A stretch of DNA of 64,000 nucleotides from contig JAHLKG010000011.1 in the NCBI GenBank assembly GCA_025526995.1, positions 806,001 through 870,000 of the forward strand. Reading direction: 5' to 3'. The notes beneath the pieces were generated by a model. The model saw only the letters and a list, made by a program, of their open reading frames with translations. It had not been told where the DNA came from and did no database searches. The stretch comes from Powellomyces hirtus. Its lineage: Eukaryota; Chytridiomycota; Chytridiomycetes; Spizellomycetales; Powellomycetaceae. Made by a program: the position numbers and the translations under genes. Positions 17,744 to 57,333 of this stretch are shown here, piece after piece; position 1 is the first letter of the stretch, and each line of letters opens with the position of its first letter.

Positions 17744-20700
17744 TCATGCAAAAATGGTGTTTTCGACGACTACACAGCTCACCTCAAACGCTCGCATAAT
17801 TCTTCGCCAACACATCCGCGACGATCCACGAAAGCTCTTGCTCACCCTACTCTCCGCATATGCCGGTCCCGGACAGTACGCAAGCGCAAAGCACGCCGCC
17901 GCCCGCTGTCGTCTCTCATTCTCTGCCGCAACCGTATTCTGCTCTCCATTCCCAATGTGCAGAATCTCAGCGCGGGTGTCTCGAACCAGCGTCCCCAAAT
18001 CGGCGTTGATGCGCGCAGCAAGGTCCTGGGCTTTGCGACGACGGTGCATGCTCCCCGTGGCGGGCACACAGCCTGCAATCACATTCGCTTCCCGCCCGAC
18101 TTGCCAGACTCGTCGGATTTCGTGGAGGCGGTACGTGTACCATTCGGCGAGGTCGGAGAGTTCTTCCATGTGGTGTTCGTAGCCAATGCAGAGAAACTTG
18201 TGGGTGTTGAGGTCAAAACTCTGGTTGCGTGGATGCGCGGCAGACTTCACGTTCACGGCATCAAACAGCTGTCCCAACACCTTTTTCGACGTATACGTAG
18301 GGGTCCTCCCGCGCCCGTTCGCCATAAAATGCGGGCGTTGTCGGGCAGATAGTTCCTTCGGCATTTGGGCGGGCACACCGGATTTGTTATAATCAACCGC
18401 GACCGAATGCGCTCGTGCAAGTAGTAGACATTTCTCCGACTGCGGCCCATCCATATCCGCATTCGCTAAATGCGCCATCGCAATCAACCCGAGGCGATCG
18501 TTACGCATAAAGTCCAAAAAGAACGCGGTGATGTCCCGGGCAGTTATGGCGGCACCGTAGTGCCTTTTGGGGGGGTGAGGGTCGTAATTCATGGGAGTGC
18601 GATTGTGGTCGTGGAGTTGGAGAGCGGGGTCAAAGTAGACGGAATAGAGGTCCCCGTCGAGGTCGCTGCCGGAAAGCATGTTGGGGGTGGGGCGAATGCC
18701 TTTGGTGGAAAAGACGATGCAGTTGCGGAGATGGTAGAGCGCGGGTGCGTTGGCGACGCAGGTGAGTTGCATGACGTCGCCGGGGTGGAATGCGGGGAAC
18801 TTGAGGACGGTACAGGCGCCGGAGCGTGGGGTTTGTTCGGTAGATAGGAAGACGAAGACCTGTACAGATACCGGAAGAGTTTCCTCCTTTATTAGATAAG
18901 GATCCTGTTGCTTCCGCATAATAAATCTACTGCATACCTCGTTCTGCTCCAATATACCAGTCTCGTCACATACACCCATGAGCGTGTACGAGTCCTCCAA
19001 CGGGATCCGACTTTTTTCCTTGATCAAAGTCAGGCGCTCCAGCCTGACAGCATCCAGCAACGTCCTCAAATACTCGTCCTGGAGGAACGGGTATCCGACT
19101 TTATGCAATGTGCGGACCACAGCCGCAAGTGGATACCCGCGGTCAACTTCATATCTCTTCTCGCGTTCACGCCCGGCAGAGTTAGTCGAGAACGTGTTGT
19201 TGTAATGCCCCGCGAGTTCCTGGATGGCGATTCTGGGCATGGTCATCATATCGTTGAGACGATCCACGGCGCGTTGCTGTAAGTCGAGGAAGACTTTGTC
19301 CGGAACGCCGCGAACCCCCGAGAGGAGTGTGATGGCCTGTCGGTTAAGGAACGCTGGTATGAGTCTATCCGTTGTCGCGGCGACTTCGAGGGTAGTGGAT
19401 GAATGCTCGAACTTGATTTGCGATGGGCGGAGGTACAGCACGTGGTCGGTCAGCAGCGGGTTGACCGCTACGACGCCTTTCGCGCCTCCATAGCGAATTT
19501 GGAACACCGAGGGGGGCGGGTCCCGCGACTCGCCAAAGAAGCGGTCGGAGATGTCGCCGGCGAGTTCAGGGCTGATCTGCCCACATCCGTCGGTGAAGAT
19601 ATGGGTTTGGCCCGTGTTGGGGTCCTTGCGCTCGATGTCGGGGATCCGCGCAGAAGGAAGGTCATGCATGGTGGGGATGGTGCTGGTGAGGGCTTGTCCC
19701 ATGCGGGCGGCGTACTTGGCGACAACGTCGATGTGGCTGAAATCACCAAGTTCGGCGCGGATGGCGTCGCATGTTAAAGTTCTGCCTGTGTTCACAGCAC
19801 TGGGAACGTCGTCGTCTTGAGGCGCGGCAAAAAACCAGCAACTATGCTGTCGCAATTGGGATGATGAGAAGGCCAAAAATTTATACGTGCGTCCGGCCAA
19901 CGCCAAGCCCTCATTCAAAATCTTGGAAAACCGTCCGTCGAGAATCGAATCCATTTCGCCCGAGAAACCGACCATGCAGCGGTCCATACTTTCTTCTGAA
20001 AAATCGACGCGAAGGAAACGATCATGATGCTCTGCGTGCCTGCGGAGCAACCGGTTGGACTGCTCGGAGAATGGGCCACTGAAATGCACTCTCAACGGCG
20101 TCACGATCGCGTGGTAGACCATCACTTGCTCTTTCTCGATCGGGTCCCGTTCTTGCTGTAACATCCTCGGGGCTGTTCGAACATGGACCATGTCGCGAAG
20201 CCCTCCGTATCGTACGGGGTCCATGAGCGATTTTAGACGATCCAAAACAGTTGATGTGGAGATGGGTTCGAGGATCTGCCAGTCTTCGAGCTCCTCAATG
20301 GCATGGCTCGCCGCGCCCATTTGGTTCATGAACTCCGTCTCGGCACTTGCTTCGAACCACGTCAGGGTGCTGACGACATGCTGCGCGCCGTGCCGCTCGA
20401 CCGACGCAACAATATAGTCCGCGAACTCAGTATTGATGAGGACCTCCACATCCAGAACGTTGCGCGAAAGCAAAATGTCCAGTTGGCGGAGTACGGTGGA
20501 GGGGAGACCCTGCAGTGCCGGATGCGCGGTCGTGACAGTCCACTTGCCTGCCTGTGCCATCCTTGCGAACGCTTGTTGAATGGCTTGGGAAGGGACGTAG
20601 TTGGGCACAGGTTTCTCTGGGACTTCGCGGTGCGGCATAATGCACTGGCAGGCCTTCCTGATCTCGACCCAGTCGGCAGATGTACGGAACGTCAATTTAA

Positions 20701-21583
20701 GCGTCATCAACCGGGAGATGTACCCTTCGCTTCCATGAGTCAAAGCCGTGCAGTCAGAGCAACGAATGTCGTCCGAATCCGTCAACGCGATCGTGGCCAA
20801 CATAGCCCGCATCTGCGCAAAAAAGTCGGAGGAACCTCCACCTGCATTCCGCTTCTTGAACAGCTGGCCGACGCGGGAGAGACGCATATACAGCACATTC
20901 GAGTTAGCTGCGTTTCCTCTGCGGTTTTCATCAAACAGCAAAGCCGTGCGAGCATCGTGGGCAAGATCTTTGATATGGATGCGGTACTGGTAGAGCACGG
21001 AGTGACGTTCGAACGCGATCAGGAACACTCGCTCTTTGGTTCGGAACTCGATCGTCACATTCTGAGCGCTGTCCAATGTGTGATCGACACGGAACTGGAA
21101 CGAAGGCTGGGAAAAAAATGTGCCCAATTCGAGCGTCGCAACTGCAAACTTTTCATAAACAACTTCATCCTCGAACTGATCGTCGTTGGCTTGATTCGAT
21201 GTATTCCTATCAATGCGTAGCCTGCGTCCATTGCAGTAGATCCTGTTGTTCAGCGCCAGCAATCGGGACGCGGTGTAGACGTCTGCGCATCTCACGAAGG
21301 CGTGGCCTCGGTTTTGATTGAACATACGGTTGGGTTTGGGCAGGTGGCATTTGATTTGTGACACGGGGGTATTGATGGCGTTGGACAGACAGGTGAGAAG
21401 CTCCGGTTTGCTGACACTGTAGGGGATGCTCCCCACGTACAGATCGTCATTTGGGGATGGATTTCTAGCGGGAGAAGTATGTGGATATGTGCTTTGCTTT
21501 TGCCGGGGAGGATGTGAGCTAGTTTTCGACAGGTGCGCGATGCCCTGAGCGGAATGTGTGATCCGCAAGCTGCTGCGCCACAT
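17744..21583 (-). CDS. RNA-dependent RNA polymerase (QDE-1/RDR type) with N-terminal RRM
   Basis: A cellular RNA-dependent RNA polymerase of the RNA-silencing type, which copies single-stranded RNA into double-stranded RNA for Dicer. The frame is open from ATG 21583 to 17744. Residues about 45-125 form an RRM fold, with LYVGSIPY as RNP2 and GHAFVRCAD as RNP1. The conserved G(V)CDETGIL block lies shortly before the catalytic loop SGSDLDGDLY (at about 18650-18664), which holds the three metal-binding aspartates. A 78-nt GT..AG intron at 18860-18937 is in frame and free of stops; removing it joins DETGILEQNE to VFVFLS, as the family expects. Near the 3' end the family's closing motif (LSWIVADVL) is present but one base out of frame at the AAA of 17831-17833. 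With the intron removed and that base supplied, the gene would end at 17784 with 1,240 residues. Confidence 0.93.
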   Translation of the reverse strand: MWRSSLRITHSAQGIAHLSKTSSHPPRQKQSTYPHTSPARNPSPNDDLYVGSIPYSVSKPELLTCLSNAINTPVSQIKCHLPKPNRMFNQNRGHAFVRCADVYTASRLLALNNRIYCNGRRLRIDRNTSNQANDDQFEDEVVYEKFAVATLELGTFFSQPSFQFRVDHTLDSAQNVTIEFRTKERVFLIAFERHSVLYQYRIHIKDLAHDARTALLFDENRRGNAANSNVLYMRLSRVGQLFKKRNAGGGSSDFFAQMRAMLATIALTDSDDIRCSDCTALTHGSEGYISRLMTLKLTFRTSADWVEIRKACQCIMPHREVPEKPVPNYVPSQAIQQAFARMAQAGKWTVTTAHPALQGLPSTVLRQLDILLSRNVLDVEVLINTEFADYIVASVERHGAQHVVSTLTWFEASAETEFMNQMGAASHAIEELEDWQILEPISTSTVLDRLKSLMDPVRYGGLRDMVHVRTAPRMLQQERDPIEKEQVMVYHAIVTPLRVHFSGPFSEQSNRLLRRHAEHHDRFLRVDFSEESMDRCMVGFSGEMDSILDGRFSKILNEGLALAGRTYKFLAFSSSQLRQHSCWFFAAPQDDDVPSAVNTGRTLTCDAIRAELGDFSHIDVVAKYAARMGQALTSTIPTMHDLPSARIPDIERKDPNTGQTHIFTDGCGQISPELAGDISDRFFGESRDPPPSVFQIRYGGAKGVVAVNPLLTDHVLYLRPSQIKFEHSSTTLEVAATTDRLIPAFLNRQAITLLSGVRGVPDKVFLDLQQRAVDRLNDMMTMPRIAIQELAGHYNNTFSTNSAGREREKRYEVDRGYPLAAVVRTLHKVGYPFLQDEYLRTLLDAVRLERLTLIKEKSRIPLEDSYTLMGVCDETGILEQNEVCSRFIMRKQQDPYLIKEETLPVSVQVFVFLSTEQTPRSGACTVLKFPAFHPGDVMQLTCVANAPALYHLRNCIVFSTKGIRPTPNMLSGSDLDGDLYSVYFDPALQLHDHNRTPMNYDPHPPKRHYGAAITARDITAFFLDFMRNDRLGLIAMAHLANADMDGPQSEKCLLLARAHSVAVDYNKSGVPAQMPKELSARQRPHFMANGRGRTPTYTSKKVLGQLFDAVNVKSAAHPRNQSFDLNTHKFLCIGYEHHMEELSDLAEWYTYRLHEIRRVWQVGREANVIAGCVPATGSMHRRRKAQDLAARINADLGTLVRDTRAEILHIGNGEQNTVAAENERRQRAAACFALAYCPGPAYAESRVSKSFRGSSRMCWRRIMRAFEVSCVVVENTIFA
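18860..18937 (-). other. In-frame, stop-free 78-nt intron in the RdRP gene
   Basis: On the minus strand the segment starts GTATGCAG and ends CTGTACAG, with a CTAATAA branch-like site. It is exactly 26 codons without a stop, so both spliced and retained transcripts would be translatable. Retention would insert 26 residues between the DETG motif and the following conserved strand. Confidence 0.75.
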
Positions 21584-21769
21584 GTAGCCCGTGTTTGACG
21601 AGCGATACAACTTTATAACTTGCGTTGTTAATCTTACTCACTCGTTTGAAAGCAATGTCCTATCAGGTTCTGTTGATCTATATGAAACTTCATAGATTCC
21701 TAGGAGGAACTAAACGCTGGAGGGGATGCCAAGCGCAGGTTTGCTCAGGACACTACAGACAACTCTTCG

Positions 21770-47327: not shown

Positions 47328-49245
47328 ATGTCTGGTGAGTAAGATCTTTGGAACGAAACCCTTAGAAGCAGGAAGGAAGCCGCTTGGGTGGCGCGCCTCC
47401 CCTTGGAAAACGACACTTTCGGAGAATGGCGGAGATCGATATTGCGTGGCAGACGACTGTCTCCCATACATGTGCTGTCCCTTGTCGTAGAGAAAGAGCT
47501 GCGGCAGTGGTGTGGGGCTTGAACACAACATGTCACTGACCAGCGTTCTCCTCCCCACCTCTCGCTTTCAGAAATTGTATCGGTAAGTGGACATTGGGTA
47601 TTTTCGTCCAGCAGCGTTCCACCAGCAAAACAACTCACTTTCTCGCTTTCTTTCTGCAGATCCCCATCGTCAAAAAAAAGCTTGCGGGTTACGTGGGTTT
47701 CCACAACCTGCCCAACCAGGTTCACCGCAAGTCGGTGAAGCGAGGATTCCAGTTTACCCTCATGGTTGTTGGTAAGTGCCAACAACTCCACCCGCCCGTT
47801 TCCGCAGGGCCGATATTGATTGCTGTGGACGTGTTTCAGGTGAATCTGGTCTCGGAAAGAGCACGCTCGTCAACACCCTCTTCAACAGCTCCCTGTACCC
47901 CAATAAGGAGAACAAGGAGCCAACTCACGATACTCCCAAAACTGTCGACATACAAACCATCAGCGCTGGTACGTCAATTTTGATCATTCTGATTCATCTA
48001 TATCGCTGTCAGAAAGCTCATGGACAATGGGCACATGTTCTCTTCAGATGTCGAGGAGAACGGTGTCAAGTTGAAGCTGACCGTCATCGACACACCCGGA
48101 TTCGGAGACTTTGTCAACAACGAGGAGAGCTGGCGCCCAATTCTCGAGAACATCGAGGCCCGCTACGACGCGTATCTGGAACAGGAGAACCGCGTGAACC
48201 GCAAGCGAATTGTTGACACTCGTGTCCACGCCTGCCTGTACTTCATCTCGCCCACCGGTCACTCCCTGAAGCCCCTCGACATTGAATTCATGCGCCAGTT
48301 GGCTGCCCGAGTCAACCTCATCCCCGTCATTGCCAAGTCCGACACTCTGACAGAGGACGAGATCAAAGCCTTCAAAGTCCGAGTGAGTAAAATGTTACAT
48401 TGTCTCGTCCGCTCGTCTGCGCTCAGGCCTTGGTACTAATGCCACTGTTGTTGCGGCAGATCTTGGAAGACATCACCTACAACAAGATCCAAATATATCA
48501 GCCTCCCATCCACGACAACGATGACCCAGAAACCATCCAGGAAAACAAGGACATCATCGTAAGTTGAACATTAGAAGAGCTCCACTCTCATGCGCTCTTT
48601 GGTGCTCATTGGATTCTGCTCCCATTGTTTGCCAGACCCGCATTCCCTTTGCCATTGTCGGAAGCGACAAAGAGGTTGAGGTGAACGGTAAGAAGGTCCG
48701 AGGACGAAAGTATCCTTGGGGTGTAATTGAAGTGGACAATGAGGAGCACTGCGATTTCGTTAAGCTGAGACAAATGCTCATCAGGTAAAGGTTGCGAGTC
48801 GTGATTATGTTTCGACATGAGACAATTGCCATTGTTTCGATACTCACAGTTAATCGCAACCGCTGTCAGGACCCACATGGAGGAGCTGAAGGAGTACACC
48901 AACGAAGTTCTCTACGAGTCCTACCGTATGGGCAAGCTGACACGTGGAGGCTACGATGTGTCATCAGAGACCTCTGGCATGAACCCTCTGTCCAAATTCG
49001 AGGAGGAGAAATTGGCGCACGAGCAAAAGATGGCCAAAATGGAGGCCGAGATGAAGGCAGTGTTCCAACAGAAGGTTGCTGAGAAGGAGAACAAGCTCAA
49101 GCAAAGCGAAGAAGAGCTCTACGCCCGTCACCGGGAAATGAAGGAGCAGCTTGAAAAGCAGCGATTGGAGCTGGAAGAGAAGAAGAGGCGACTTGATGGT
49201 GGAACACCGGAGAAGGGGAAGAAGAATAAGGGACTTTTCAAGTAG
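47328..49245 (+). CDS. Septin, CDC3/AspB group
   Basis: Eight exons (47328-47334, 47572-47582, 47660-47771, 47840-47968, 48048-48382, 48460-48558, 48636-48784, 48870-49245) join in frame to 405 residues. The first two exons are only 7 and 11 nt. Septins are GTP-binding proteins that assemble into filaments at the division site and cortex. The P-loop is [10 protein letters not shown]3 is DTPGFGD, and the G4 motif appears as AKSD. The septin unique element includes [21 protein letters not shown]-terminal coiled coil ([18 protein letters not shown]) follows, which pairs septins within the filament. The N-terminus [20 protein letters not shown] and the coiled coil are closest, from memory, to Aspergillus AspB. 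Septin membership is certain; the subgroup is likely. Confidence 0.95.
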
Positions 49246-49941
49246 AGATGAAGAAAACAAACTCATGCGCGCGCTGGCCACCCGATAAACTTAACCCTAA
49301 ACTTTTTACCTCCCACACAATCCTTCCTTTCTCCCCAACACCACCATTCTTCATACGAAAAATAAATGGATCTGACTTTAATAGATGTTCATTTACCATG
49401 GAAATGCCTCTGGGGAAGGGCACACCTTTTGCTGAAGGCACAAATGTCAGAGATGTCTGGTGTCATTATTTGTTGGAGGAGTGTGTTGTCAGGTACATTC
49501 AGTTGGACTGTCTGGGGGAACGATAATTCGACACGGACCGAGTTTGCGACAAACGTTGTATACTCGCTGGAGCTTTGCCGCTATGTTTGTTGAATGGAAT
49601 AAACCAGATATTCCTCCCCGTAAGACTCATGCCCAGCTCTCCACACACTGGAGACCAGACCAGGCGTCGGCACATTTTCATTCATGTTCCTTTTACGTTT
49701 TCGGATTTTGGACGCAGGCCGTGCGGCAGGACTTCCTCATTGGGCATTCAATAAGAGGCTTACGTGTAGTTATCGTGAATGACGTTGCATGACGCGCTCG
49801 CAAGTCCACCTCGAGTGTCATCAGCGAGAGAGACGCCAGGCAATAAAAGCCGGTCCCCCATCTCCCTACCGACCGCAAGAATCCCGCTCAACACCACAAC
49901 ACGCAACAAACCCCTTTCAACTCACCCCACACACACAGAAA
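49246..49941. other. Intergenic, nothing recognised
   Basis: The septin 3' flank and the promoter of the small orphan gene. Only short open frames. Confidence 0.55.
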
Positions 49942-50290
49942 ATGGACGCCCTCAAAAACGCAGCATCCGGCATGTTCAACAGCAGCGGCGGCGCCGGCAA
50001 GCCCAACCTCGCCGTTGGCGGCACCGCGGCTCAAACCGGGGTCGGCGCACCCAGCGCCGCCCTCCCTGCCACCCACAAACCCACCATGTTCGACCAGGGC
50101 ATCGATGCGGCCCAGAATGCGGGTATATTGCCCAAAACTGGCACTCAGCAAGGTATGAAGGAGACAGACAGACAGGACGAGGTGTGAGTTAGGGGGGCGA
50201 GGTAGTGACGTGTTTGGTTATTTCTTAGGCAATATGGTGGATATGGGCCAGAAAGCGTACGGATCGTACTCGGCGGGCCAGAAGAAGTAG
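49942..50290 (+). CDS. Small Gly/Ala-rich orphan protein, 90 residues
   Basis: Two exons (49942-50152, 50229-50290) with a phase-1 intron of 76 nt. The start is preceded by a CA-rich leader and an AAAATGG context. The protein begins MDALKNAASGMFNSSGG, has a Gly/Ala/Thr/Pro middle, then FDQGIDAAQNAGI and NMVDMGQKAYGSY, ending in two lysines. The repeated amphipathic helices resemble small stress-type or membrane-associated proteins, but no family is recognised. The splice keeps the frame and the translation is compositionally uniform, so a real gene is likely. Confidence 0.6.
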
Positions 50291-50553
50291 AGGGATTTGG
50301 TCAAATATCGATATCTCTCTACCCGCGAAAATCAACAACCTGAGCCGGCCCTACGGCGTCGTTACCCAAGCCCCTCCGCCTCACCCAAAAAGGTCTTTTG
50401 GTTGAAATGGTTCAATTCCCCCAGTCCCATCTGTAACATACACTGCACTCACACTCTGCGCACACGAGGCGTTTGAATACATGCGCTTTTTTTTGTCCGA
50501 AGCTCAGCATATGTATCGATACGTTTTGGTTCGAGAAGATTATTTCGCAGGCT
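50291..50553. other. Short intergenic flank
   Basis: The 3' flank of the small orphan gene up to the possible start of the OLD-like relic; no feature is seen. Confidence 0.5.
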
Positions 50554-53500
50554 ATGTTGCGTTGTAGGAATGGGGGAGGATGCGGGTTGGGAAAGCTCGT
50601 ATTTCACCCCGTTGTGTGCCGCAACCTCAGCCGACCTGGCCGTCAAGCAGTCGACACTCAACTGTCTTCTCCCACGTGCACTTTCGTTGGGCCGTGCCCG
50701 TCGGGCAAGACAAGCGTGCTTCGGCGACTGTCGCACTTTTGCGAGAGTTCTTTGACGTTCGAGGTATTAACGGATAGTCCAGGCGCACAACGTACAGTGC
50801 TTCAGCGTTTTTTTGACGATCATCTTCTCGATCGCGCCGGCCGGGCTGGTGACGACATCACGCTTTCCAGCAAGATCTCGTCCATGTACACGTTCCTGGT
50901 GACGAGCAATCCTGCTTTAGGTGGCGCTCCGTACGAATTCTAGGGCCTGAGCATGGAACCGCTGCTCTCCCGCTTCTGCACGGCAGCTTCATGCTTCCAC
51001 CTTCTGAAGCGGGAAACGACTTCCCGGGAATCAAAAGAGACTACAACTTCGCTTCCAAAGCGGCTGAGAAATGGCCTTAACGAAAAACACGTCCTCGGCA
51101 GCTGCGTCAGGTCATATACGCCAGCGTGGGCTAGCTTTGCTGTCCAACGTGGCGTTCGTGCCCCAGGACCACGGACTGCGCGACCGCACCTTTTGCGGTG
51201 AACCATTTTTCTTCTCTCGTGACTGGTTGAGTACCTGTCGCCTCGGCGATGATGCGTCCGCGTTCCTTCACATGCTCACGGGCCTTGTTCCGAATCCCGG
51301 AGCAACCTCGTCGGAAGATCCCAACGCCTTTATGAAAGACGTCGGCGCCACGTCGGTGACTGGTGGACCACTGCGCAATCTCTCGGGTGGCGAAAGCGAC
51401 GCCGTCTTCTGCCTTGCAGCATTGCTCGGTGTGTATCCGCCGGACTCGGCAGAATTGCGGCAGACGCGTCGTGTCCTCCTGCTGGACGATTCTGGACAGA
51501 ACTTGGGCGCCCACCAACAGTCACTCCTGCGATCCAAAATTGAAGCCACATGCATGGCGGTTGACTTTCTCCAAGTTATCATTGTGACACACCACGTGGA
51601 GATGCTCGATCCGCCTCGCCTGCCTAAAGGCGTCCTTCGCTTTTCCACCGACACGAACAGTTATTACGACAGGAACCAAGCGCTGGTTCGTGTGCGCGAG
51701 CTTGCCTTCTAGGGTAAAGCGCTCAGCAAAGAATACAGCGCCTCGATCATTTGGAACTGTACTTTGCTCGGGTTGTTGTCATCGTTGATGGCCGATCCGA
51801 CGTGGAGACGCTTTACCTCGTCGACTTGCATTTCCAAAAGCTCAACGCCACGCGTAACAACCTCGCGCCCAACAGTTCGCAACGACAAACTCTCCATGCC
51901 AACCTGCCAACCTCAAGCTGGTGAACGCGCTGGGCTATCGCGGCCTGGTGTGAAAGCTGGTGCTCACGGACGGGTGCAGCGATATTCGTCCCAACGCTTT
52001 GCTGTGCAGCGACCTCAACATCAACTTCCTCGCCGTTTATGATTTCGACGTGCTCTGCTTCGGTACCCAGCGTGCAAAAGAATGCAAAAGCCATCAAGTG
52101 CCTGACGCGGTACGGCGGTGGGTCCTCGCGTAGCATCTCTGAGGAACTCGCTGGCCTCGGCGGGCACATTTTCCATGCGCTCGACGGCTGCACCTGGCAG
52201 CAGTTCCGCGATGAGCGGCAGCCACGCACGCTTGGAGATCGTCCGGTGCTTACATCGCTCTACCCTCCATTGGTACATCAGTTGACCCTCATCTGCTTTC
52301 TCATCTGTAACGCGTTTGGGACCTCCTTGTTGGTGCCCCTTGATGCGCCTTGGTATCAGTGCGCCATGAAAGCCATCTACGACTCCCAGGGGGACAAATC
52401 TGTGCGCGATGCCGAATTCCGGCTGGCGGAGGCAAGTAAGGCGTACGCAGCTGCTCAAGAGCGGTGGGAAGATGATTGTTGACGTTGTGAGAGACCAGGC
52501 GGAGTCGCCCGCGCTTCTTTGCCTACAAGTATCGGAGCAGCGTGCTTTGGAAAAAGCCGAATTCGTGCTGGAAAAAGCTAAATCCGCGCTTGAGGAACAC
52601 AAGAGCGGTGCTACCTTCGTTGAGCGAAATTCTCGTGCTCGAACGGATTGGAGCGAGCACGCGGCGGCGCAATTCAATAGCGCTCCGTTTGACCCCAAAT
52701 TCGAAGACGCAAGGGTTACGGTGGCTACGGTCATGTCCTTCTTCCAGGACGAGTTTGACACCACCGTCGTAAGAGCCACCTCAGCCGATGCCTTCCTGCG
52801 CAACCTTTGCGGCCAAAACGATGCCGAAAAACGCTTCGCCTTCGACGAGCCGGCATCCGTGCTCCAATGGTTCGGCAGATCGGCCGGGAACTCGCAAATT
52901 GGTAATGAGCGGCGGCTTTTGGTTTGCGTGGAAATGGCTCGTAACAGGCAAATTGTTGCATGCCCTTACGATCATTCGGATGACGCGACGTGCGAGGAGC
53001 CCCCTCACATCATAAGCGTGTTGGCGCGCGCGCTTTCGTGTGCGCGTTGGCCAGCGCCGTGCAGCTTCGCGACGGCACTCCTGGAGCGATCCTCAGGGTC
53101 GTGCGAGGTAGCTGCACGCTACTTCGCATAGTCAGGTCTAAGGACAACTCGATTCTCGAAGAGTTGAGGATGGCAGACAAATACGGGCGGTCTCGCGCTT
53201 CCCAGCGGTGCGAAGACATTAGAGACATGTTGCATGTGCTGGCTAGCTTTGCAGCAAATGGTTGCGGAAATCCGGTCGCGTTTGTGTGGCCCCCGCAGAC
53301 CGCCGACATCGAGGGAATCTACTTTAACAAGAACGTGCTTGGCATGTCTCCTCCGCCCGTTCCACCGCCCTCGCCGCCTGCGCTGGCGGTCGATTCTGTC
53401 GCCAAATCTGATGCTGCATCACCACCACATGCTCCTACGCTCGTTCCCCCGCTGTCGCCCCCATGTGCTGACGGTCGATTCTGTTGCCAAATCTGATGCT

Positions 53501-53761
53501 GCATCACCGCCACATGCTCCTACGCTCGTTCCCCCGCTGTCGCCCCCTGTGCTGGCGGTCGATTCTGTTGCCGAATTGGCTGATTCCGTCGCCGAATTTG
53601 ATACTGCGGCCTCTGTTGCCGCTGCGCTTTGCTGGCAATCCGGCGAGCGTCGCCGTCTCGCCGAGCTCACGCACGAAATCAAAAGCCAGCTAGGGCGTGA
53701 GGACACGGCCGTGAAACAAAGGCGTCTCCAAGCGCTGTTCCGCTCCGACGCACACTGGTAA
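50554..53761 (+). pseudogene. Broken OLD-family-like ATPase/TOPRIM gene
   Basis: A 3.2-kb GC-rich, intron-free stretch in which successive frames carry parts of one long protein. The first has a Walker A, FVGPCPSGKTSVL (near 50690). A TAG at 50941 breaks it. The next frame (to 51712) has the ABC signature NLSGGE, a Walker B with D-loop (VLLLDDSGQNLGA) and an H-loop (VTHHVEML). A third frame has VVVIVDGRSDVETLYL, and a fourth, broken by TGA at 51951, has VYDFDV; these match the two acidic motifs of a TOPRIM domain. Further frames give a coiled coil and a C-terminal region with a 28-residue Pro-rich repeat, ending at 53761. The order ABC ATPase then TOPRIM is that of OLD-family nucleases, which are mainly bacterial and phage defence-type proteins. 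At least six frame changes and two stops are needed. The usual TOPRIM Glu is Asp here. Confidence 0.55.
53391..53585 (+). repeat. 84-85-bp tandem repeat (coding, Pro/Ser-rich)
   Basis: Units start CGATTCTGT at 53391, 53476 and 53560. The first spacing is 85 bases and the second 84. The 84-base unit codes for a 28-residue repeat (VDSVAKSDAASPPHAP...). The extra A in the first unit, at about 53463, shifts the frame. Confidence 0.85.
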
Positions 53762-55690
53762 CAGGATCACTCAGCCATCTTGGGATTGGCAAGATTCTTT
53801 CGAACGGCTTCGCAAGAAGCAAGCAGCCAACTTCGAAGCAATGTGAAATGAGAATTTCTGGCGGCAGTCGTGGCGCAGGTGCCGCCAACATAAATGTTGT
53901 TGGCGGAGAAGCAAGGATCAAAGGGAGAGAGAAAGGTTTTCTCGAGTTATAAGATAGAAAAATCTTCGGACGGATGGCATCACTGCATACTTGTCAAGCA
54001 GCATAAGGAGGGCACCCATTCCAAATAGTGTCATTTACAATCATTTCCTCTGCGCACATCAACACCGTCCGTCCTGCACAGTCTAATAATTGTTGCACTG
54101 TTTTGTATGATTGCTTATAAATTTGAGTTGCTAAAGCCAAATTCTCGAGAAATTCTGATTAATGCTGCACCGAAACGTCATGCCCGGATGGGTACGGTAC
54201 CAATTTGACAGGGCAACAAAGTTCAAGGTTTGGTTCTGGTTGTTGACTCTAAACCTCCCACCGGGCATTATTATAGTATACAAAGCATGTGCGGGGGATG
54301 GGTATCAACACGTTCTTGAACAGCGGTAGGCGATGGACATCCAACCCACAACCTCGGGACTCAGTGATGATAAGGGGAAGCGGCTTGGTACACGGTGCAT
54401 TTGTATACAAGCCTCTTTTCTGAACCAGTAATGTGGACAGTACCTCGCACTGGCAGCGGCGGGTGGTCAGTGAACGAAAACCTCAATTGTGTGCATGTGT
54501 GCACGCTTTGATCGCTATCGTGCTCTCGCCGGCTTGCCGCCATGTCGGAGTCCAGGTCTGTGCTGTGCTCTTTCTCCCTCCGGGATTGACCGGCGAGTCC
54601 CGGAGGGAGAAAAAGAGCGAGAGACAGGGGCGCGGCGACTCCGACACCGTATATTACACCGGGGTGCCAGGAAATACAGTACAATGATCGTGCCACCCAT
54701 GCGGAAAACCCAATTCCTTGCGGAAAGGAGGGAAAGGAAAAGACGAAAAAAAACCCCAGCTGAGCCGCGTTGCGAATTGCAATTGCCCATGTGGTATCAG
54801 GACAATGCGCCCATATAGCACGGTACACCGTCCCCGGAAGATGATTGCAAGCAACACGGGGCTGGTGCGCGCCCGTCCTACGCCGTACTCAGTCAGGTCC
54901 AGAGTCATCAGGTCGTTCATCAACGTGAAGGTCTCGGAGTGTGAAAATAATTTGACGTGGCTTGTGCGCGCTCCGGGAAATAGCCATTCTTTCACACTGA
55001 AAAAGAGCCACTCTGATGACCGAGAAATTGGGAGCGCGAAATCCTTTTCACACTTCCGTCCGTCACTCAGGGCTCTCGGTGTGCGAGAAAAAAGAAAAAC
55101 GTCGGGGGGACATCCGTTCCAGACGAGCAAAGTCCGCTGGGAGTGTGTGTTGCAAATCCGATCCCCACCCCACGGGCGCACATACCGTCCTTTGTCTCAT
55201 GAAAGCTGATTACGACGGTATTGCCCCGAATGCCACCCACACTGCTCGATAACACTCTGCACAACCACACCTCCCAAATGAAAAAAGTAACATTGAACAT
55301 GGGGTGCCGTCGATAGCCCCGTTGGCCACACCCTCGAATCCATAAAGGCGCCAAAGCTCAGACTCTCCCATTTCGACATCGCTTTGGCCCCATTGGCATT
55401 CTACCCAAACTCTTATGGTCATTTCCTGCACAGGGTCCACCCTTGCTGCTTAAGGGTTCACATGCTGCCGTACCCATACCTCAATCTAATCTAGTCTCCA
55501 AATATTCTTGGAACCTGTACGCGCGCGCCATTCCCCCACACACCTTCTCACGGGCATTACCCTTTTTTGGCCGAAACTCCTGCACTCGTCAGTCGGTCGG
55601 AGCACACCCCATCGTTTCTCCGCTGCTTCATAAACGATTTTTCACAATCCCACGTTTACTTACTGTTACCACTCGCGTCGGACAAACCCA
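53762..55690. other. Long intergenic region with hairpin
   Basis: No supported gene. It contains a strong inverted repeat at 54544-54645 and several weaker palindromic bits around 54930-55090. A minus-strand frame at 54654-55181 is open but its composition looks random. Confidence 0.5.
54544..54645. repeat. Inverted repeat / hairpin
   Basis: The left arm (54544-54585) and right arm (54598-54645) pair best over CTCTTTCTCCCTCCGGGA against its complement (with two extra A) and again at the outer ends GTCGGAGTC/GACTCCGAC. The loop is 12 bases. It is too G/C-rich and long for a chance palindrome, and could be a small foldback element. Confidence 0.65.
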
Positions 55691-57333
55691 ATGTTGGCAA
55701 AAACCAGTGTCGTCTTGTCGGCTCTTTGCGTCCTCGTGTTTGCCACAGTATGTTCCGCCCAGGCGCCCCGTCGGCCCCCTGTCGACCCGGACATGTGGAC
55801 GACGGTGCAGATGACTGATATGACCATAAGAGCGGTTTCGTTGACGTTGATGTCAGGTATGTGTCGGATAAACAACGAGCACGGTGCGGGAAAATTACAG
55901 CGCCAGAATGTTAACCGTTGTTCCTTCCAGTCAACGTTGCTGCGTATTGGCTCACGTTCAATAACAAGAACAGCACCGTCAGTCGGCTCATCCTCGCTTT
56001 CCTGCTTGCTTATCTCGGGGGTATCATCTGCCACGCTGTCCCTAAATTCCAGCGCGAAATCAACAATGTGTCGACAATGTACATTGGCAATTTGCTTTTC
56101 TTTTCGTCGGCGCAGATCTTCAACTGGGTTCTGTGGCTGGTGCGTCTCCTGGCTTTTGCTGCAAATCTCCGTTCCTGTCCATCTAATCTAACCGTGGTCT
56201 GTTGTCGTCTTCAGCGCTTCAACCTGGTCGTGCCCTTCCGCCACAAAATCCGCATCTTCACCATCGCCTGGTTGACTCTGGAAACACTCGGCACCGTTGC
56301 CATTTACATCTACTGGACCTACGCCGTCACGCAAGACAACTTTGAATGGCGGTCCTGGATTGCCAACGTGTACAGCAAATTCACCATTGCGCAGGCCGTT
56401 TCGGCGCTGTTCATGTCGGGTTATTTTGTGAAAGCCTACTATTTCCCCAAAATCATCGACGCTCGCGACCAGACGTCCAGATCCACCTTTGCGCGCCTGA
56501 TCACATCGGGCCTGTTTTACCTCGTCGCGGAATCCCTGCTGCATCTTGGGTTCTTTGTCCTTTACGAAATTGAGGCGACCCGCAAATACTACTCGTCCCT
56601 CACCCAGCTCGTCGCGGGAATCCGATTCATGCTTTTCCTCGTATTCGTCTACCAGATCCGCGACGCGTCCGCCCGGTCCGCAGCGTCCAAACTCTCTGGC
56701 AACGGATCAGGCGACCACACTGGATCCCTCACCCGCCGCACTATGGGAACCCTCCGTAGAGCCGACACGATCTCGTCCATGGTCAAGGACGACAACCACA
56801 ACAATATCTCTCAGATGCACACCCGCGCCCTCTCCCCAGGCCCGTACGGCGCTTACCCGAACCACCAAGACATCCACACCGACTACCCGATGTCCTCCTC
56901 TTCCTCCCAAGATCCAATCATGAGAGTCACTCACAACAACAACTCGAGCAGCTCCACCGTGTCGTACGACCAACCCAATTACCCGGCCCCGGCCCGTCGC
57001 GCCGTCGTGGGGTTTGCGCAACCGCCCATGCAGCTCAACCGCGTCACGGTGCATCAGATTGGAGCCGAGTCGCCCCCGCCTATACCGGCCTTGCGCTCCC
57101 CGGCCCCGTCCTCTCCGCTGCCCTATATTGGAAGCAACAACACCAACAACAACAATGAGTACCGACAACCGCCAGACTATGAGCTCGAGAAGCAAAATTA
57201 TTACCATAGTAACAATAATAACAACCGAGATTGGGACCGCAAGAGCGCAAAGCAGGAGTATCAGGTCCCGGACGCGGTCAATGGGAAACATGATGCGGAG
57301 GACTGGGCGAATCGTTTTGTGCGCAAGAACTGA
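55691..57333 (+). CDS. Seven-transmembrane protein with long polar C-tail (GPCR-like topology)
   Basis: Exons 55691-55856, 55931-56139 and 56215-57333 give 497 residues. A signal peptide (LSALCVLVFATVCSA) precedes seven hydrophobic helices, including ILAFLLAYLGGIICHAV, LLFFSSAQIFNWVLWL, TLETLGTVAIYIYWTYAV and LVAGIRFMLFLVFVYQI. The C-terminal ~210 residues are a Ser/Asn/Pro-rich cytoplasmic tail with Asn tracts and SP sites. The topology matches fungal receptor-like proteins, but I see no receptor-family motif, so function is unknown. The second intron (56140-56214, 75 nt) is in frame and stop-free, with a CTAATCTAAC branch region; if retained, 25 residues are added after the third helix. Confidence 0.75.

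What the first reader, a model, noticed from the sequence alone, without database searches (positions are those of the whole stretch)
50554..53761. OLD-like ATPase-TOPRIM relic in a fungal chromosome
Seen: Walker A, LSGGE, Walker B with D-loop, H-loop, then a VDGxSD block and a YDFDV block, in that order, across shifting frames in one GC-rich, intronless 3.2-kb stretch. Known: ABC ATPase followed by TOPRIM defines OLD nucleases, mainly bacterial and phage. Inference: a horizontally acquired, now decayed gene. The long C-terminal extension (coiled coil, 28-residue repeats) is not part of OLD proteins I know.
Basis: partly seen in the sequence, partly recalled or inferred. Interest (0 to 1): 0.75.

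Follow-up and report, generated by a model that had tools for sequence, protein, structure and literature searches.

The report
Decayed fungal OLD-like nuclease gene
A chytrid fungus carries the broken remains of a gene for an ATP-driven DNA-cutting enzyme of a kind so far described mainly as a bacterial anti-virus defence, and the remains lead to a small, apparently undescribed family of intact relatives that seems to include at least one protist.

Summary
In the chytrid Powellomyces hirtus, about 50554-53803 is one broken gene. Frame-aware alignment to an intact relative (P0003, 1085 aa) gives 199 identities over 507 aligned residues, score 657 against 56, 65 and 70 for three controls, with six frame changes and two in-frame stops in the first 1.65 kb. 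More breaks follow downstream. No second or intact copy was found in the assembly.
The six relatives (P0003-P0008) carry an ABC ATPase (P0008's model lacks the Walker A part), an OLD-like TOPRIM over Pfam's cut-off in 3 of 6, an insert of variable length, and WP....DIE.....K in 6 of 6, which matches OLD's third metal-binding motif. With the P. hirtus model they form one clade apart from 19 bacterial OLD proteins. P0007 appears to be Andalucia godoyi; P0004 is a EukProt transcript. A 2019 OLD survey reports homologs "absent in eukaryotes".
Recent horizontal acquisition is not supported by composition. The relic has aspartate for both catalytic glutamates, and is dead. The family is a new variant of the OLD kind; its role (ATP-gated DNA nuclease, perhaps defence) is inferred.

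The parts
50554..53803 (+). whole relic of the OLD-like gene; 5' end uncertain (an ATG in frame 1 lies at 50554), similarity to P0003 starts at 50659
50659..50940 (+). N-terminal ATPase lobe, frame 1; Walker A at 50683-50721; TAG at 50941
   Evidence: PADLOC GajA match over the Walker A region, E 5.6e-4
51068..51709 (+). ATPase core, frame 2: Q-loop VPQDHG, LSGGE, Walker B (D in place of the catalytic E, S in place of P), D-loop, H-loop
   Evidence: P0003 E 5.6e-34; P0004 E 3.5e-15
51736..51897 (+). TOPRIM first half, frame 1; LYFAR..VDGRSD (D in place of the catalytic E)
51906..52067 (+). TOPRIM second half, frame 0; in-frame TGA at 51951; DxD motif YDFDV
   Evidence: 48% identical to P0003 397-450
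52072..52302 (+). GGHIF..W..PPLVH block after the DxD, frame 1
52303..53226 (+). insert between the DxD and DIE motifs, frames 1 then 2; charged stretch 52532-52603; no detectable similarity to P0003
   Evidence: best score 46 v 42 for the reversed control, and that 46 lies before 52303
53227..53338 (+). conserved block with WPPQTADIEGIYFNK, frame 1: likely third metal-binding motif of the TOPRIM
   Evidence: score 108 v 32 for the reversed control
53348..53576 (+). three copies of a 28-codon Pro/Ala-rich repeat, spacing 85 and 84 nt
53552..53803 (+). C-terminal tail, frame 2, with a premature TAA at 53759
   Evidence: E 3.8e-6 with low-complexity filter and composition correction off; E 4.2e-4 to 53809

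Best explanation
The stretch is a single-copy pseudogene in Powellomyces hirtus. It derives from a family of OLD-like proteins: an ABC ATPase head whose pairing is gated by ATP, fused to a two-metal TOPRIM nuclease, with a large variable domain inserted in the TOPRIM between the DxD and DIE metal motifs. Intact members probably nick or cut DNA under ATP control, most likely against foreign or mobile DNA, as OLD, Gabija and retron ATPase-TOPRIM proteins do. In P. hirtus the gene is dead: frame changes and stops break it and both catalytic glutamates have become aspartate. Shown: homology, motif order, decay in this assembly, no second copy found, native composition. Inferred: ATP gating, nuclease activity and a role in defence.
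For: Frame-aware alignment 657 v 56-70. Seven hits to the ATPase core among 7819 candidates, E 8e-127 to 1.2e-6, one being the P. hirtus model itself and six being relatives. Pfam OLD-like_TOPRIM over cut-off in 3 of 6 relatives and below it in the other 3. PADLOC Old hits in 4 of 6 (P0003, P0004, P0006, P0008; E 9.2e-12 to 2.3e-7). Foldseek first hit TsOLD, E 1.9e-5 (on a weak model). TOPRIM profile v bacterial OLD TOPRIM 70.8 v shuffle maximum 17.8. WP....DIE.....K in 6 of 6 relatives; an OLD-type motif [DNST]-[IMVFL]-E..[LFI] lies 60-160 residues past VEG in 16 of 19 bacterial OLDs against 7% of shuffled segments (274 of 3800), one of them (L049) reading WPAGDIES; these are the metal-B ligands by PMC7049728. 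One clade, support 100/99. No second copy. GC3 0.634 v 0.662. Unbroken RdRP, ArgRS and ADP-ribosylglycohydrolase Pfam matches in the window argue against a generally frame-broken assembly.
Against: The relic alone reaches no family cut-off for TOPRIM or OLD. Both AlphaFold models are poor (mean pLDDT 42.2 and 38.1), so the placing of the DIE motif in the active site rests on sequence. PADLOC mad3, an ATPase family, is the best hit for 5 of 6 relatives and the only one for the relic's ATPase piece; Old leads only for P0003. VIA-align's leading rows are Rad50, AriA and SMC heads over the ATPase, and 6p74 is not in its 50 rows. P0007 has DSE for DxD. Four of six relatives are metagenome or unnamed. 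No raw reads were available to rule out assembly errors.
Confidence: 0.8

Rival explanations
1. A bacterial OLD gene acquired recently by the fungus and then decayed.
For: OLD proteins are described from bacteria, archaea and some viruses (PMC6755086 abstract); the alignment shows no intron-sized gap; one bacterial OLD shares a WP..DIE block (L049).
Against: GC3 and codon usage lie in the range of five window ORFs. A pattern scan of the GTDB collection gave 2 confirmed loci, a generic archaeal OLD-like protein and a ZnuC. In 200 genomes of the phylum of an alphaproteobacterium, 162 had some match, the best 36.5 bits over the P-loop; only the best candidates per genome were scored. The family is a clade apart from 19 bacterial OLDs. 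An older transfer is not excluded.
Confidence: 0.1
2. An ordinary SMC, Rad50 or ABC-transporter pseudogene, the TOPRIM-like motifs being chance.
For: Rad50 and SMC heads are among the leading rows of the VIA-align list; Pfam SMC_N is hit in 6 of 6 relatives at E 0.01, over its cut-off only in P0005.
Against: The TOPRIM half aligns over its length in the relic, is over Pfam's cut-off in three relatives, and beats 50 of 50 shuffles. SMC and Rad50 carry coiled coils between Walker A and the signature, not a TOPRIM after the H-loop (recalled).
Confidence: 0.03
3. The gene is intact in the organism and the breaks are sequencing or assembly errors, or are spliced out as the NCBI model proposes.
For: NCBI carries a stop-free gene model over the region (P0002).
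Against: That model starts in the upstream gene and skips the DxD half of the TOPRIM, which aligns to P0003 at 48%. Some lesions are not indels (in-frame stops; E to D at two catalytic places). Neighbouring domains are unbroken.
Confidence: 0.07
4. An endogenised piece of a virus or other mobile element of chytrids.
For: A patchy distribution fits selfish or anti-selfish genes (inference).
Against: No relative confirmed in IMG/VR by two pattern scans or with P0006 in 50,697 phage records; of the repeats found in 48000-57000 none flanks the relic; one copy.
Confidence: 0.05

Closest known systems
OLD nucleases, Class 1 (P2 Old, T. scotoductus OLD 6p74)
   Same: ATPase then TOPRIM in one chain; llFAr.vILVEG, DxD and a later [DNST]-x-E motif
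   Different: LDEPGQNLGA at Walker B/D-loop, where the consensus of 19 bacterial OLDs reads EEPEahLHP, and an SGGQ-type signature; 125-543 residues from DxD to the WP..DIE block against 45 residues from D433 to S478 in TsOLD (numbering)
Gabija GajA (Class 2 OLD)
   Same: ATPase-TOPRIM with a helical domain at the metal-B ligands (PMC6755086, passages); GajA match at the relic's Walker A, weak GajA matches in 6 of 6 relatives
   Different: insert of other length; whether a GajB helicase lies next door was not tested
Retron ATPase-Toprim I-B (Class 3 OLD)
   Same: single-chain ATPase-TOPRIM; PADLOC matches in P0003, P0004 and P0006
   Different: whether a reverse transcriptase or msDNA gene lies next door was not tested
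Mad3 (MADS) and Rad50/SMC ATPases
   Same: ABC head; mad3 is the best PADLOC hit for 5 of 6 relatives and for the relic's ATPase piece
   Different: the mad3 profile (374 positions) matches the ATPase part only
Cran1, archaeal OLD-family ATPase (PMC12796447)
   Same: OLD-family protein with nickase and ATPase activity, by its synopsis (passages)
   Different: no sequence comparison made here

Membership tests
OLD family nuclease | N-terminal ABC ATPase and C-terminal TOPRIM in one chain | tested here: met
   Relic: order of motifs and alignment. Relatives:
OLD family nuclease | Match to a curated OLD TOPRIM profile over its cut-off | tested here: inconclusive
   Relatives: 3 of 6 over cut-off. 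Relic: 0 of 8 pieces, 15.6 of 23.2 bits when read with X at breaks, no ring
OLD family nuclease | Metal ligands E...D, DxD and [S/T]-x-E plus a basic residue | tested here: inconclusive
   Relatives: VEG..D in 6 of 6; DxD in 5 of 6, DSE in P0007; DIE and K in 6 of 6, D where OLD papers give S or T. Relic: the first E is D
OLD family nuclease | Dimerisation domain inserted in the ATPase | tested here: inconclusive
   Some 105-140 residues lie between Walker A and Q-loop in the five relatives with both, but the models are too weak to fold them
OLD family nuclease | Nuclease activity | not testable with these tools
   needs a purified intact relative
Class 2 OLD (Gabija) | UvrD-like helicase gene next door | not tested
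   neighbours were not scanned for a helicase; contigs of the relatives could not be fetched
SMC/Rad50 | ABC head with no TOPRIM after the H-loop (recalled) | tested here: not met
   TOPRIM present

The most novel reading that the evidence does not exclude
Eukaryotic microbes have their own class of OLD-like ATPase-TOPRIM nucleases, contrary to the published 'absent in eukaryotes', with an SGGQ-type ABC head and a fast-changing insert inside the TOPRIM that may be the target-sensing part; it acts as an innate DNA-defence nuclease that lineages gain and lose, and P. hirtus shows one such loss.
Probability: 0.4. Interest if true: 0.72.

Novelty: new variant of a known kind. Interest (0 to 1): 0.5.

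Why it matters
OLD-type ATPase-TOPRIM nucleases are studied as bacterial and archaeal proteins, and a survey of 833 homologs states that they are absent in eukaryotes (PMC6755086, passage). A clade holding a protein labelled as a jakobid's, a EukProt transcript and a chytrid relic says otherwise, and names intact proteins that can be expressed and assayed. It also shows that a public gene model is a chimera.

Tried and rejected
A search with the 214-aa ATPase piece alone found nothing; the length filter shuts out full-length relatives. The profile search with A1 returned only P0003, as only the candidates sharing most words were scored, so the family list is a lower bound. IMG/VR: 32 pattern matches, none confirmed; two WPP-DIEG matches were taken as chance, no match to the family better than E 0.05 in either stretch and none to its ATPase core. 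GTDB collection: L011 is a ZnuC, L010 a generic archaeal OLD-like protein. Two AlphaFold models were poor; only the first was used for fold searches. Of 25 bacterial OLD loci, 19 passed an ORF filter and 6 were dropped. My first motif count there, 14 of 19, used wrong anchors in two sequences; one search gives 16 of 19 and a shuffle control. Recent horizontal transfer by composition: not supported (its codon score was trained on the same five ORFs, two of which miss their Pfam cut-off). Splice sites of the NCBI model: of seven gaps that I delimited from alignment edges, two start GT and end AG at those edges; the edges are approximate and the real splice sites were not worked out. P0002 was left out of A2 and A3. 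Paper searches for OLD, Gabija, TOPRIM or P. hirtus with eukaryotes, fungi or transfer listed none that by its title or the start of its abstract describes this family; apart from PMC7049728, PMC6755086, PMC10568477, PMC12796447 and PMC7050145 none was opened.

Full report
Where it is. The window lies in a 29.3-Mb genome of 60 contigs. The NCBI protein model P0002, 'hypothetical protein DFJ77DRAFT_440919 [Powellomyces hirtus]', matches the window piece by piece, identical apart from the ends of the aligned pieces and the stretches it skips, so the host is the chytrid Powellomyces hirtus (Spizellomycetales). That model begins in the upstream gene (MDALKN..., 49942) and strings relic fragments together across gaps.

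What is there. Aligned frame by frame to P0003, a 1085-aa metagenome protein, the region 50659-52300 scores 657 with 199 identities over 507 aligned residues; reversed protein, minus strand and neighbouring DNA score 56, 65 and 70. Six frame changes and two in-frame stops fall in this part; two of the frame changes, near 50900-50945, lie in a poorly conserved stretch and are the least certain. Downstream the insert (52303-53226) shows no similarity to P0003 above control (46 v 42), then the block with WPPQTADIEGIYFNK scores 108 v 32, and a tail match runs past the TAA at 53759 to about 53803 (E 3.8e-6 with filters off; 4.2e-4). Repeat spacing of 85 and 84 nt marks another break.

Is it decayed? 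Besides the breaks, Walker B reads LDDSG where 6 of 6 relatives read LDEPG, and the TOPRIM starts VDG where 6 of 6 read VEG. RdRP, ArgRS and ADP-ribosylglycohydrolase match their Pfam profiles unbroken in the same window. No second copy was found with the relic's DNA, P0003 (six matches, all inside the relic) or P0006 (one, inside it); Pfam OLD-like_TOPRIM rings nowhere in the genome, not even at the relic, so that scan is a weak test.

The family. One search gave seven proteins among 7819 candidates: the P. hirtus model and six relatives. P0004 comes from EukProt; P0007 is a EukProt entry named ANDGO_01337, a prefix that I recall as Andalucia godoyi (the genome paper PMC7050145 was searched for that tag without a hit); P0003 and P0006 are from JGI, P0005 from JGI and another source, P0008 from ENA, hosts unknown. 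All six have VPQDHG, a signature motif (LSAGE in P0003, SGGQ in the others), LDEPGQNLGA, THH[VI]EML and VEG..D, and WP....DIE.....K 125 to 543 residues after the DxD. P0008's model starts at VPQDHG and lacks Walker A.

Is it OLD? Pfam OLD-like_TOPRIM is over its cut-off (23.2 bits) in P0003 (25.8), P0007 (23.8) and P0008 (26.1), under it in P0004 (22.3), P0006 (19.9) and P0005 (17.2). The family profile finds 6p74 (T. scotoductus OLD) second in the PDB at E 4.5e-10, after ST1066, and aligns its EVLFAKRALLVEGYGD and HDEDV segments to the family's TOPRIM (5.6e-9 and also second with A1). By PMC7049728 (section 18 read) the OLD ligands are E377, D381, D431, D433, S478 and E480, with R487. In 16 of 19 bacterial OLD sequences a motif such as DIEHYL, NIEQHL or TFEVDF lies 60-160 residues past VEG, against 274 of 3800 shuffled segments; L049 reads WPAGDIES, close to the family's own block. 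I infer that DIEG is this motif. hhalign of the alignments gives probability 99.3 over 193 columns of ATPase C-lobe and TOPRIM; TOPRIM alone gives 98.0, score 70.8, shuffles at most 17.8 in 50. Foldseek puts 6p74 first, E 1.9e-5, on a model of mean pLDDT 42, so this is weak support; VIA-align on the same model lists ATPase heads, without 6p74 in its 50 rows. PADLOC gives Old for 4 of 6 relatives, but mad3 is the best hit for five of six. In a tree of 27 rows the seven family rows form one clade, 100/99; the archaeal OLD-like L010 falls on their side of the midpoint on a long branch, and the root is not known.

Where else. Pattern scans of IMG/VR and of GTDB genomes, a tblastn of phage records with P0006 and a profile search of 200 genomes of one bacterial phylum (162 with a match, best 36.5 bits over the P-loop, few candidates scored per genome) gave no member that I could recognise. 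The pattern scans need exact short words, and the last protein search was cut short by its candidate limit, so absence is not shown.

Origin. GC3 of the relic is 0.634 against 0.662 for five window ORFs, and its codon score (0.045) lies between theirs (0.014 to 0.186). So no sign of recent foreign origin remains. Old vertical inheritance with losses and old transfer are both open.

In print. PMC6755086 (passages) reports 833 OLD homologs 'absent in eukaryotes'; PMC10568477 (passages) and PMC12796447 (passages) treat OLD proteins of bacteria and archaea. The searches list no paper on a eukaryotic OLD family by title or start of abstract; the library holds open-licence papers only.

How it would work. 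From the OLD papers: the ATPase head pairs and binds ATP, and the TOPRIM cuts DNA by two metals. Intact relatives keep nearly all those residues, so an ATP-gated DNA nuclease is the likeliest reading, and defence against foreign DNA its likeliest use, neither shown. The relic itself can hardly do anything of the kind now.

Noticed in passing
window 49942-53493: Public gene model DFJ77DRAFT_440919 is a chimera of a short real gene and relic fragments; it omits the DxD half of the TOPRIM.
   Followed up: partly
window 54568-54615: Hairpin with 18-nt arms, 94% complementary, 12-nt loop; a DNA search with the 1239 bases around it matched only itself in the genome.
   Followed up: partly
window 17744-21610, minus strand: Unbroken RNA-dependent RNA polymerase of the RdRP Pfam family, E 7.9e-169.
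   Followed up: no
L010 470-3007: Archaeal OLD-like ATPase-TOPRIM with LDEPGQNL, on the family's side of the tree on a long branch.
   Followed up: partly
L049: A bacterial OLD-like protein with LWPAGDIES, the same WP..DIE block as the family; a possible link between the two groups.
   Followed up: no
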